A stretch of DNA of 64,000 nt from an uncultured Oscillibacter sp. (lineage in GTDB: Bacteria > Bacillota > Clostridia > Oscillospirales > Oscillospiraceae), in NCBI GenBank assembly GCA_950097265.1, contig CATNDJ010000007.1, forward strand, positions 20,908 to 84,907, given 5' to 3'. A program made the translations under genes and the position numbers. Positions 6,414-63,771 of the stretch are shown piece after piece. The number at the start of each line of letters is the position of its first letter. Position 1 is the first letter of the stretch. Under the pieces are notes generated by a model, which saw only the letters and a list, made by a program, of their open reading frames with translations, was not told the origin of the DNA and searched no databases.

Positions 6414-7034
6414 TCATATCACGTTGACGCCGCCGTGGCAATAGAGCTCCCGGGTCCGGCGGGTAAAGGTGTGGCGGGAAAGGCCCAGTTCCTTTCCCGC
6501 CTGGACGGCGCTGATCTCCCCATCCCGCCACCGGCGGGCCACGGCGTCAAAGCGCTCCGGCACCGGCAGGGGCCGCCGCCCGAACCGGACCCCCTTTTCC
6601 CGGGCGGCGGCGATGCCCTCCGCCTGGCGCTGGCGGAGGAACTCCCGTTCCGTCTGGGCCACGTAGCTCAAGAGCTGTAAAACGATGTCCGCCACCAGCG
6701 TCCCCGTCAGGTCCCGGCCCTCCCGGGTGTCCAGCAGGGGCATGTCCAGGACGACGACGGCCACCCGCCGCTCCCGGGTCAGGAGGGCCCACTGGGAGAG
6801 GATTTCGTCATAGTTCCGCCCCAGGCGGTCGATGCTCTTTACCACCAGCACGTCCCCGGGGCGGAGGCGGCTCCCCAGGCGCTGGTACAGGGGCCGCTGG
6901 AAGTCCTTTCCGGACCGCTTTTCCACCACGATGCGGTTCTCTTCCACGCCGAAGCTCCGCAGGGCCGCCACCTGGCGGTCCTCCTTCTGCTCCCGCGTGG
7001 ACACCCGGGCGTAGCCGAATAATCTCTCTGACAT
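6414..7034 (-). CDS. small serine recombinase (resolvase/invertase family)
   Basis: MSERLFGYARVSTREQKEDRQ...VKSIDRLGRNYDEI...ETEREFLRQRQAEGI-type motifs and C-terminal HTH; RBS AGGAGGAACC. Confidence 0.93.
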   Translation of the reverse strand: MSERLFGYARVSTREQKEDRQVAALRSFGVEENRIVVEKRSGKDFQRPLYQRLGSRLRPGDVLVVKSIDRLGRNYDEILSQWALLTRERRVAVVVLDMPLLDTREGRDLTGTLVADIVLQLLSYVAQTEREFLRQRQAEGIAAAREKGVRFGRRPLPVPERFDAVARRWRDGEISAVQAGKELGLSRHTFTRRTRELYCHGGVNVI

Positions 7035-7179
7035 TCCTGGTTCCTCCTCATTTGTAGAATGGCAGAATTGTAAAACAGATTTGCCTTCAATACAGCACCC
7101 GAAGGCGGTTTTATGTTTCCACCCGTGCAACTTTTTAGAAGCGGCTTTGGAAAATTTGGGATAATACACAAAAGGGAGC

Positions 7180-7203
7180 GCTCAGAAGGTATACTTTCTG
7201 AGC
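7180..7203. repeat. dyad element 1 (GCTCAGAAGGTATACTTTCTGAGC), embedded in longer 18-bp-arm palindrome 7170-7213
   Basis: direct inspection; 22/24 identical to 7295-7318. Confidence 0.85.
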
Positions 7204-7244
7204 GCTCCCTTTTGAATCCGTTCACCTATGTTATCGGTTGCGTT

Positions 7245-7271
7245 TTTTCAAAATTAAGCGGGTTTTGAAAA
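7245..7271. repeat. dyad element 2 (TTTTCAAAA-N9-TTTTGAAAA)
   Basis: perfect 9-bp inverted repeat between elements 1 and 3. Confidence 0.6.
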
Positions 7272-7294: not shown

Positions 7295-7318
7295 GCTCAG
7301 AAAGTATACTTTATGAGC
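7295..7318. repeat. dyad element 3 (GCTCAGAAAGTATACTTTATGAGC)
   Basis: imperfect palindrome, 22/24 identical to element 1; lies just upstream of csrA. Confidence 0.85.
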
Positions 7319-7347: not shown

Positions 7348-7584
7348 ATGCTGGTGCTGGCTGTCAAGCAAGGGGACTATCTGGTCCTTGGCGAAGACGT
7401 GGTGGTCCAGGTGGCCGAGATTGGAAACGTAATCCGCCTCGCCATCCAGGCCCCGAAAGATATGCCCGTCCTGCGGGGCGGGGTCTACGAGGAAACCTAT
7501 CCCACGCCGCCCTGCGTCGTCCGCCAGCGGCGGAAGCTGGCGGAACGGCAGGAGGAAGACCGCTTCTGGTATCTCAGCAAGTAA
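7348..7584 (+). CDS. csrA: carbon storage regulator CsrA
   Basis: MLVLAVKQGDYLVLGEDVVVQVAEIGNVIRLAIQAPKDMPVLRGGVYEE; RBS AAGGAGGA. Confidence 0.92.
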   Translation: MLVLAVKQGDYLVLGEDVVVQVAEIGNVIRLAIQAPKDMPVLRGGVYEETYPTPPCVVRQRRKLAERQEEDRFWYLSK

Positions 7585-7639
7585 CGGTTTCACTCTCCCG
7601 GCGGTGCGGTACCAACCGCCGGGGGATGAAATATACGGC

Positions 7640-7683
7640 ACGGGTGAAGGATTACCCGTATTATTTAAAGGAGGAACCTAAAA
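7640..7683 (+). promoter_or_regulatory. putative CsrA-binding leader of flagellin mRNA
   Basis: hairpin ACGGGT-GAAGGATT-ACCCGT with GGA in the loop (7649-7651) plus second GGA motif at the Shine-Dalgarno AAAGGAGGAACC. Confidence 0.6.
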
Positions 7684-9495
7684 ATGCGTATTCAACACAA
7701 CATCATGGCGATGAACGCCTACCGGAACTACAACAACAACACCGCGGCCCTGGCGAAAAACCTGGAAAAGCTGTCTTCCGGCTATAAGATCAACCGGGCG
7801 GGCGACGACGCCGCGGGCCTGGCCATTTCCGAGAAGATGCGCGCTCAGATCACCGGCCTGTCCGCCGCCCGGAAGAACGTTAAGGACGGCATCTCCCTGG
7901 TGAAGACCGCCGAGGGCGCGATGCAGGAAATCCAGGACATGCTCAACCGCATGGACTACCTGGCCACCCAGTCCGCCAACGGCACCTATGACGACCCCGT
8001 GGACCGCAAGAACCTCCAGAAGGAAGTCGACGCCCTGAAGACCGAAATTAACCGCATTGCGGATTCCGCGAACTTCAACGGCATCCAGCTCCTGGACGGC
8101 TCCCTGGCGGGCACCAGCTCCAGCTCCACCACCGCGGGCATCAAATAGTATGACCTGAGCGGCATCAACTCTAAGCTGACGGTTTCTACGAACGCGGGTC
8201 AAAAGGGCCAGTTTACTACCGCTGCGTTCTCCAGCGCTTCCGCCCTGGACGGCGCGGGCAAACTGGTGGAAACCACTGTGGTCAACGACGACACGATCAC
8301 CGTGAAATTTGACCTGACCGGAGCCGACGGAACCCGCCAGACGGTCGAAGTCAACCTGAAGGTCACCGGAGACGAGGACGCCCCCGCCACCAAGTTGGTG
8401 GACCAGTACGGAAACGAGACCTCTATTTCGAACGCCAGCGTGACCAGCGCAAATATCAGCGAAGCTGTGGCGGCTGCCCTGAAAAAGAACGACTTTGTCA
8501 ACCAAAACTTTAAGGTCACCGACCAAACCGGCAAAATTCAATTCGAGAGCAAGGAAAAGAGCGCCGTCGCGGGGCTGAACGGCGTTTCCATGAGCTCCAA
8601 TCTGGCCCAGGCCGCGCACACCAATACGAACTACAACCTGGGTGCGATTAAAGTGGACCGGGCCGGTGCGGATAACTTCAAGTATGTCAACCTCGCCGGC
8701 GCGGCTCTGGGCTGGGACGGCACGGCTTCCAAGCTGGAAGAGAATATCCTGACCGTGGACGGCAAGAAGTTCCTGTTCATTGACGGTTCCAAGGTCAGCG
8801 CGGCAAGCGACAAGAACTCCACCGCCGCCGGAACGGACGGCATCCCCACCTTTGACTATGCTCTGAAGCTGGCGAAGGAAGCCGGCATTGATATTGGGAA
8901 CATCGTGTTCACCAAGGGCGATACCGCCGATTCCTCCGAGGTGGCACAGATGGCCGCTACCATCGCCAGTAAGACCGGCCTGAGCGTGGAGCGCGGCGAC
9001 GACCCGACTAACACTGCGGGTGGCTGGGTCTCCACTGTCGGCGGCGGCACCTTTATCGCCATCAAGATGGGCGGAAGCACCACCACCTCCACCAGCGGCG
9101 GCCTGCGCCTCCAGATCGGCGACACGGCGGACGCCTTCAACCAGATGAACGTCCGGGTGGGCGACATGCACACCAAGGCTCTGGGAATCGACGGAATCGA
9201 CATCTCCAACCAGGAGGGAGCCGCGGCGGCCATCAAGACCATCAAGGCGGCCATCAACAGCGTGTCCGAGGTCCGCGGCGACCTGGGCGCCATCCAGAAC
9301 CGTCTGGACCACACGGCCAACAACCTCTCCGTCATGCAGGAGAACATCCAGGACGCCGAGTCCACCATCCGGGACACCGACGTGGCGGAAGAGATGATGG
9401 CCTACACCAAGAACAACATCCTGATCCAGTCCGCTCAGGCGATGCTGGCCCAGGCCAACGCTGTTCCTCAGGGCGTGCTGCAGCTCCTCGGTTAA
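7684..9495 (+). CDS. flagellin with in-frame amber codon at 8146-8148 (codon 155); otherwise continuous to codon 603
   Basis: N-terminal MRIQHNIMAMNAYRNYNNNTAALAKNLEKLSSGYKINRAGDDAAGLAISEKMRAQI and C-terminal NRLDHTANNLSVMQENIQDAESTIRDTDVAEEMMAYTKNNILIQSAQAMLAQANAVPQGVLQLLG lie in one frame, interrupted only by TAG. Confidence 0.93.
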
Positions 9496-43272: not shown

Positions 43273-43938
43273 ATGTATTTGACTCGCCTGGGGGGCCTGC
43301 TGGCCGCCTACCAGCGCCGGGACCCCGCGGCCCGGAGCAAGCTGGAAGTTTTTCTGCTCTACCCCGGGGTGCATGCGCTGCTGTGGCACCGGGCGGCCCA
43401 CTGGCTGTATCTCCGCCGCCGGTATTTCCTGGCCCGCTGGATTTCCCAGCATGCCCGGAATAAGACCGGCATCGAAATTCACCCCGGGGCCACCATCGGG
43501 CGGCGGCTGGTCATCGACCACGGGATGGGCATCGTCATCGGCGAGACCGCCGAAATCGGGGACGACTGCCTGCTCTATCAGGGGGTGACCCTGGGGGGCA
43601 CCGGGAAGGACCAGGGAAAGCGCCATCCCACCCTGGGGAACAACGTAATGGTAGGGTCCGGGGCCCGGGTGCTGGGGCCCTTCAAGGTGGGGGACAACGC
43701 CCGCATCGCCGCCGGGGCGGTGGTGCTGCGGGAAGTGCCCCCGGGGTCCACCGCCGTGGGCGTTCCGGCCCGGATTGTCCGGGTGGACGGCTGCCCCGTG
43801 TACTACGCCGACGACGTGGACCAGATCAGCGTCCAGGACCCGGTACGGGAGGAGCTGGAACGGCTGGCCCGGCAGGTGGAGAAGCTGGAGCGGTCCCTGG
43901 AGGGCCGAAAGGAGACCGGCCGGAAGCGGCCCGCGTAG
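43273..43938 (+). CDS. cysE: serine O-acetyltransferase
   Basis: hexapeptide repeats; [69 protein letters not shown]. Confidence 0.93.
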
Positions 43939-62923: not shown

Positions 62924-63771
62924 AATACTGCGAGGAATACGCGGCCCTGTTGGACCTGTTCGTGGACGGCGAGCTGGCGGGGCCCGAGATGGAGCGGGTG
63001 CGGGACCACCTGTCGGAGTGCCCCGGCTGCCGGGCCTATGTGGACGACGCGCTGGCCATCCGGGCGGGCTTTCCGGATGTGGAAGAGACGGCTGTGCCGG
63101 AGGGCTTCGCCGGGGGCGTGATGGAACGGATTCGAGAGGCTTCCGCCAAGGATAGGAAAATCGTGGAGCTGAAGCGGCGGGGAGTCCGGCGCTGGCTGGG
63201 GACGGCGGCGGCTCTGGCGGCCTGCTGCGCCCTGGTCATTCTGGTGCGGACCGGCAACGGCGCCGCCGTACCCACCGGGGGAGACCGTGGCGCGGATTAC
63301 TCCTCTTATAATAATGGTCCGGCGGACGGCGCAGCCGATGTGATTGGCGGCGAAGAGGCGGGAATCGCCCTCCAGGCGGCCCCGGAATCGAAAGAAGAGC
63401 CGGCGGAGAGCGCGCCGGAGGAGGCCCAAGCGGCGCCGGTGGTGCGGTCGAAAGCGGCGGAGCTTTATAATGACGAAGAGGCGCTGAAGGCGGCTCCGGC
63501 GGAAGCGGCCCCGGAAGCAGCAATGGACAGCGGGCAATTCTCCGCCTGTCCCTCTGCGCCGGAGGAGCAGCCCGCTTTGTGCCTGACCGCAGAAGAGGCC
63601 GGGGACCTGCTGGACGGATTTACTGTGGTATGGGAAAACGCTGTGGAATGGCGTTATAAGCTGAGCAGGGAAGAGTATCAGACGCTGCTGGAGGCGCTGG
63701 GCCGTCAGGAGGAGCTGCCGGAGACGGAGGAGGGGCCTTTCCTGGTGGCGGTGTCGGGGCCTTTGGAATAG
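62920..63771 (+). CDS. anti-sigma factor with zinc-finger (zf-HC2) domain
   Basis: CEEYAALLDLFVDGELAGPEMERVRDHLSECPGCRAYVD; TM; overlaps sigma gene. Confidence 0.92.
   Translation: MKYCEEYAALLDLFVDGELAGPEMERVRDHLSECPGCRAYVDDALAIRAGFPDVEETAVPEGFAGGVMERIREASAKDRKIVELKRRGVRRWLGTAAALAACCALVILVRTGNGAAVPTGGDRGADYSSYNNGPADGAADVIGGEEAGIALQAAPESKEEPAESAPEEAQAAPVVRSKAAELYNDEEALKAAPAEAAPEAAMDSGQFSACPSAPEEQPALCLTAEEAGDLLDGFTVVWENAVEWRYKLSREEYQTLLEALGRQEELPETEEGPFLVAVSGPLE

What the first reader, a model, noticed from the sequence alone, without database searches (positions are those of the whole stretch)
8146..8148. In-frame amber codon interrupting an otherwise intact flagellin
The frame that starts at 7684 reads a canonical flagellin N-terminus, hits ATC AAA TAG TAT GAC CTG at codon 155, and continues open in the same frame for 449 codons to a canonical C-terminal D1/D0 domain. 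There is no frameshift and no good re-initiation site just after the stop. Options: fixed nonsense mutation in a non-motile strain, read-through or amber suppression (including pyrrolysine-like decoding), nonsense-based population heterogeneity, or a base error. TAG is used as an ordinary stop elsewhere in the window (cysE, and the anti-sigma gene ending at 63771), so global TAG reassignment is unlikely.
Basis: partly seen in the sequence, partly recalled or inferred. Interest (0 to 1): 0.72.

Follow-up and report, generated by a model that had tools for sequence, protein, structure and literature searches.

The report
Broken flagellin behind a flip-switch promoter
A spare flagellin gene in a gut bacterium has an ordinary nonsense mutation in its middle, and it sits behind an invertible DNA switch of a recently described kind that is in the OFF position in this assembly, so the broken gene was probably already silent when it broke.

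Summary
The flagellin frame 7684-9495 carries one in-frame TAG at 8146-8148 (codon 155); both conserved flagellin domains are intact and nothing else is broken. It is best read as a recent nonsense mutation, not recoding. A second flagellin in the same genome is identical for 429 bp and then diverges; its aligned codon is TAC (Tyr), one base change away. RF1 is present, no tRNA-CUA or PylS was found, and TAG ends other genes here.

Upstream lie a serine recombinase (6414-7034, minus strand), two 24-bp inverted palindromic sites (7180-7203, 7295-7318) flanking a FliA-type promoter, and csrA (7348-7584). Sister loci show the same promoter segment flipped between collinear flanks. This is a Hin-like inverton of the kind published in 2026 for csrA-tldR-flagellin loci, here without tldR. 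As assembled, the promoter points away from csrA-flagellin (OFF).

Of 88 complete flagellins surveyed, only two have a premature in-frame stop with an intact C-terminus: this one and L101. Both are TAG and both lie behind OFF-oriented invertons (suggestive only, n=2). Most likely: tolerated loss of a silent, phase-variable flagellin while the paralogue, with its own FliA promoter, remains intact.

The parts
6414..7034 (-). Serine recombinase (206 aa), Hin/Sin/resolvase type, putative invertase of the promoter segment
   Evidence: Pfam Resolvase PF00239 E=8e-29; best solved relatives Sin/Bin3 (1e-29) and gamma-delta resolvase; serine motif YARVST and KSIDRLGRN present on inspection
7180..7203 (.). 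Left inverted palindromic site GCTCAGAAGGTATACTTTCTGAGC (recombination site, inferred); core of a 46-nt hairpin 7169-7214 followed by Ts on the minus strand
   Evidence: inverted repeat 92% with 7295-7318; 0 expected by shuffling; unique pair in the genome; hairpin -34.9 kcal/mol, z -9.9
7231..7257 (-). FliA/sigma28-type promoter TTAATTTTGAAAAAACGCAACCGATAA, pointing away from csrA and flagellin (OFF as assembled)
   Evidence: sequence; same motif class lies upstream of the paralogue on C3, pointing at it; motif match only, not tested
7295..7318 (.). Right inverted palindromic site GCTCAGAAAGTATACTTTATGAGC (recombination site, inferred)
   Evidence: homologous sites beside related recombinases in G105, G104, G084, G005
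7348..7584 (+). csrA-like translational regulator (78 aa)
   Evidence: Pfam CsrA PF02599 E=4e-15
7640..7659 (+). Stem-loop in the flagellin leader with GGA in the loop; second GGA in the Shine-Dalgarno: probable CsrA site
   Evidence: fold of 7585-7700, z -4.5; CsrA role inferred from known GGA-in-loop targets
7684..9495 (+). Flagellin gene interrupted by the amber codon
7684..8112 (+). Tract 100% identical in DNA to the C3 paralogue (gene-conversion tract, inferred)
8146..8148 (+). In-frame TAG, codon 155; aligned codon in the paralogue is TAC (Tyr)

Best explanation
The TAG is a recent loss-of-function nonsense mutation (most simply TAC Tyr to TAG) in an accessory, phase-variable flagellin gene. 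Transcription of the csrA-flagellin unit depends (inferred) on a FliA promoter on a ~90-bp segment between two inverted sites, flipped by the adjacent serine recombinase. In the assembled DNA the promoter faces away, so the gene is silent and a stop codon costs nothing while it stays so. If switched ON, the cell would make csrA and a 154-residue N-terminal flagellin stub with no C-terminal D1/D0, which should not polymerise. The filament can be made from the second flagellin on contig C3, which has its own fixed FliA promoter. Shown: the TAG, both flagellins, the sites, the promoter orientation, inverted segments at sister loci. Inferred: the recombinase flips this segment, silence in OFF, relaxed selection as the cause, and the state of the C3 gene's missing 3' end.
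For: TAC at the aligned codon of the paralogue, gaps only in whole codons, Ka/Ks 0.38 after the stop, both domains intact: a young lesion. RF1 over cut-off, no CUA tRNA, no PylS over cut-off, TAG ends other genes. Site pair unique in the genome and absent from shuffles. Recurrent [recombinase]-[inverted sites round a FliA promoter]-[tldR optional]-[csrA]-[flagellin] modules in related genomes. Direct inversion evidence: L188 (ON) and L201 (OFF) have collinear flanks with the middle 157 nt reversed at 82%; L070 and L106 (ON) against L101 (OFF) likewise at 87-90%. Both truncated flagellins among 88 complete ones are OFF loci. FliA is encoded. The same switch is described in PMC13418256.
Against: Silence in OFF is not measured; csrA-flagellin might have another promoter. 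The OFF/nonsense link rests on two genes: Fisher p=0.005 against all flagellins, but 0.27 among the invertons classified, and L101's state was read by hand after the script missed it. One contig shows one orientation; a population may hold both. No same-species genome or reads were available to date the mutation. The C3 paralogue is cut by the contig end, so its C-terminus is unseen.
Confidence: 0.78

Rival explanations
1. Sequencing, assembly or strain-mixture artefact: most cells have a sense codon and the TAG is a consensus error or minor allele.
For: The assembly looks like a draft or metagenome bin (139 contigs, 91.5% complete, 4.8% contamination) and the gene has a near-repeat elsewhere in the genome.
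Against: The TAG lies 33 bp past the identical tract, in sequence unique to this gene and with flanks unlike the paralogue's, so mixing the two copies cannot create it. No other breakage in the gene.
Confidence: 0.12
2. Amber suppression or read-through (tRNA suppressor, pyrrolysine or leaky termination) makes a full-length flagellin.
For: The frame downstream is intact and looks constrained; TAG is a rare stop in the window, 2 of 43; a second flagellin, L101, also has TAG.
Against: RF1 present; no CUA tRNA in the set found (set incomplete); PylS hits far below cut-off; the two TAGs share neither position nor context (AAA TAG TAT against CAG TAG AAT); no other gene interrupted in 107 kb.
Confidence: 0.03
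3. The amber gene is a silent cassette: gene conversion with the C3 copy can repair it or pass its variable domain to the expressed gene.
For: A 429-bp tract starting exactly at ATG is 100% identical while the rest has Ks 0.64, so conversion has happened recently; the C3 contig ends inside another conserved block, as expected if the 3' ends are near-identical too.
Against: Shared flagellin ends are expected from ordinary concerted evolution; no donor-recipient mosaic of the variable domain was seen.
Confidence: 0.07

Closest known systems
hin - FliA-promoter inverton - tldR - csrA - fliC loci of Oscillibacter and Flavonifractor (PMC13418256, 2026)
   Same: Serine recombinase beside a ~120-bp inverting segment with a FliA promoter, then csrA and flagellin; GGA stem-loop in the flagellin leader
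   Different: No tldR here or elsewhere in the assembled genome; csrA starts 30 bp after the right site; recombinase is divergent; the flagellin is broken by an amber codon
Salmonella hin-hix-fljBA phase variation
   Same: A serine recombinase next to a flagellin promoter between inverted sites; alternative flagellin elsewhere
   Different: Recombinase lies outside the inverted segment; csrA in place of fljA; sites have a palindromic core; no Fis enhancer looked for
Clostridioides difficile flagellar switch (RecV)
   Same: Invertible DNA controlling flagellar expression in a Clostridia gut bacterium
   Different: RecV belongs to the tyrosine recombinases (own knowledge) and the switch controls the flgB operon, not a flagellin
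Ordinary flagellin pseudogenes (for example broken accessory flagellins in other motile bacteria)
   Same: A single nonsense mutation in one of several flagellin copies
   Different: Here the copy is linked to a promoter inverton in the OFF state

Membership tests
Hin-type flagellin promoter inverton (csrA-flagellin type of PMC13418256) | serine recombinase adjacent | tested here: met
   Resolvase domain, 6414-7034
Hin-type flagellin promoter inverton (csrA-flagellin type of PMC13418256) | inverted sites flanking a FliA-type promoter of ~120 bp | tested here: met
   24-bp sites 115 bp apart, 0 expected by chance; promoter motif between
Hin-type flagellin promoter inverton (csrA-flagellin type of PMC13418256) | both orientations found | tested here: inconclusive
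   Shown between sister loci; for this locus only one orientation, one assembly
Hin-type flagellin promoter inverton (csrA-flagellin type of PMC13418256) | csrA and flagellin downstream | tested here: met
csrA-tldR-flagellin locus | tldR present | tested here: not met
   none between site and csrA; no match in own genome to a sister TldR
Amber recoding (Pyl or suppressor) | CUA tRNA | tested here: not met
   none among the 30 tRNAs found; draft genome, some tRNAs missing
Amber recoding (Pyl or suppressor) | PylS | tested here: not met
   best hit 25.5 bits against cut-off 178
Nonsense pseudogene | one-step change from a sense codon in an intact homologue | tested here: met
   TAC in the C3 paralogue
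Nonsense pseudogene | no full-length product | not testable with these tools
   needs proteomics

The most novel reading that the evidence does not exclude
Phase-variable flagellins collect nonsense mutations while switched OFF and are rescued by gene conversion from their paralogues, so that a promoter inverton and a conversion-fed silent gene pool work together to diversify the filament.
Probability: 0.07. Interest if true: 0.6.

Novelty: new member of a known kind. Interest (0 to 1): 0.36.

Why it matters
The amber codon itself is ordinary. It does illustrate a testable idea: genes held OFF by an inverton are shielded from selection and can decay unseen, which would turn reversible phase variation into permanent loss. 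The locus also adds a tldR-less version of the recently described csrA-flagellin invertons of gut Oscillospiraceae and shows that such switches recur in the genus with and without the RNA-guided repressor.

Tried and rejected
Pyrrolysine or suppressor decoding: no PylS, no CUA tRNA, RF1 present. Global TAG reassignment: TAG ends a CysE-like gene at 43938 and an anti-sigma-like gene at 63771, and a gene junction in L007. Mix-up with the paralogue in assembly: the TAG is beyond the identical tract. A tldR elsewhere in the genome: none found, though the search has no positive control in that genome. Same-species DNA across the TAG in viral contigs: none. Reading the ancestral codon from wider homologues failed because the central domain is too variable.

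Full report
The observation. The frame from ATG 7684 reads a flagellin N-terminal domain, meets TAG at 8146-8148 as codon 155, and continues in frame for 448 codons through a complete flagellin C-terminal domain to TAA at 9493-9495. Openness by itself would be weak evidence, since the opposite strand is also open for 668 aa in this GC-rich DNA; homology on both sides is what makes the case. In 107 kb of this genome it is the only in-frame stop between two coding-like stretches that is not followed by a close restart.

What the codon was. The genome (G000; 2.49 Mb, 139 contigs, 91.5% complete) has a second flagellin at the end of contig C3, with no stop in its 508 available codons. The first 143 codons of the two genes are identical in DNA, starting exactly at ATG, while the leaders differ. 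Beyond codon 143 they diverge (Ks 0.64, Ka 0.25, Ka/Ks 0.38, gaps only in whole codons). The codon aligned to the TAG is TAC (Tyr) in the context TAC TAT GAC against TAG TAT GAC. Because the TAG lies 33 bp beyond the identical tract, confusion of the two copies by the assembler cannot explain it.

Recoding. RF1 is present and over its cut-off. The best PylS-model hits are 25 bits against a cut-off of 178. ARAGORN on the 30 tRNA loci gives no CUA anticodon, but the set is incomplete (for example no Trp, Asp, Asn or Phe tRNA), so absence is not proof. TAG is a rare but real stop: 2 of 43 plausible genes in the window, one of them CysE-like.

The surroundings. Directly upstream is a serine recombinase gene on the minus strand (6414-7034) with its catalytic motifs intact by inspection; its nearest solved relatives are Sin/Bin3 and gamma-delta resolvase. 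Two 24-bp palindromic sites at 7180-7203 and 7295-7318 form an inverted pair that no shuffle reproduces and that occurs nowhere else in the genome. Between them lies a FliA-type promoter on the minus strand (7257 to 7231), pointing away from csrA (7348-7584) and the flagellin. The C3 flagellin has a similar promoter pointing at it. The flagellin leader folds into a stem with GGA in its loop next to a GGA in the Shine-Dalgarno, a likely CsrA site. The left site is the centre of a 46-nt hairpin (-34.9 kcal/mol) that could end transcripts from the promoter in the OFF orientation.

Is it a switch? Related genomes of the same genus carry many relatives of this recombinase (50 of 86 genomes), often with a palindromic site of core AAAGTATACTTT beside the gene, and often followed by csrA and a flagellin. 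Many of these loci also hold a TnpB-like gene whose RuvC motifs look degenerate by inspection, so probably TldR. The inversion itself is visible between sister loci: L188 and L201 align collinearly on both sides while 157 nt between run in reverse at 82% identity, with the promoter ON in L188 and OFF in L201. L070 and L106 (ON) against L101 (OFF) show the same at 87-90%. A 2026 paper reports hin genes, ~120-bp inversions with a FliA promoter, tldR, csrA and flagellin in Oscillibacter and Flavonifractor (PMC13418256). The window locus is of that kind but lacks tldR, and no tldR was found elsewhere in the assembly. Other loci lack it too, for example L191, L134, L143 and L091.

Amber codon and switch together. 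Among 88 flagellins with both ends present, only two have a premature in-frame stop followed by an intact C-terminus: this one and L101. L101 also has TAG, at a different place and in a different context, and it too lies in an inverton locus in the OFF orientation. With 7 OFF loci among the 88, Fisher's exact p is 0.005; within the 13 classified invertons it is 0.27. The comparison was made after the fact, has n=2, and L101's state was read by hand, so it is only suggestive. FliA and the C3 flagellin suggest that the cell need not be non-motile.

Verdict. A young nonsense mutation in a spare flagellin that is held silent, as assembled, by a promoter inverton of a known kind. The interest lies in the switch and in the possible link between OFF state and decay.

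Noticed in passing
window 7169-7214: The left recombination site is the centre of a near-perfect 46-nt hairpin with a T run, so the site may double as a terminator for the OFF-oriented promoter; the related site in L187 (G084) has the same extended form.
   Followed up: partly
L188, L189, L190, L194, L196, L198, L201: TnpB-like ORFs of ~400 aa with degenerate RuvC motifs (GLKYS in place of GIDLG; NREINAA in place of DRDxNAA) sit between inverton and csrA: probable TldR RNA-guided repressors.
   Followed up: partly
G076:C81, G097:C13, G032:C25, G084:C24, G104:C53, G081:C26: Several relatives of the recombinase carry one internal stop codon (TAG, TAA or TGA), so some of these switches may be locked.
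   Followed up: no
L192 (5620, 5797) and L193 (5002, 5151): The same palindromic sites flank segments of ~150-180 bp next to recombinases with no flagellin nearby, so this switch family controls other genes too.
   Followed up: no
window 7684-8112 and G000:C3 1096-1524: 429 bp from the start codon are identical between the two flagellins although the rest has Ks 0.64: recent gene conversion.
   Followed up: yes
L030 (G018:C19), L011 (G019:C22): Two further flagellins look damaged: TGA near codon 4, and a probable frameshift with a stop at codon 206.
   Followed up: no
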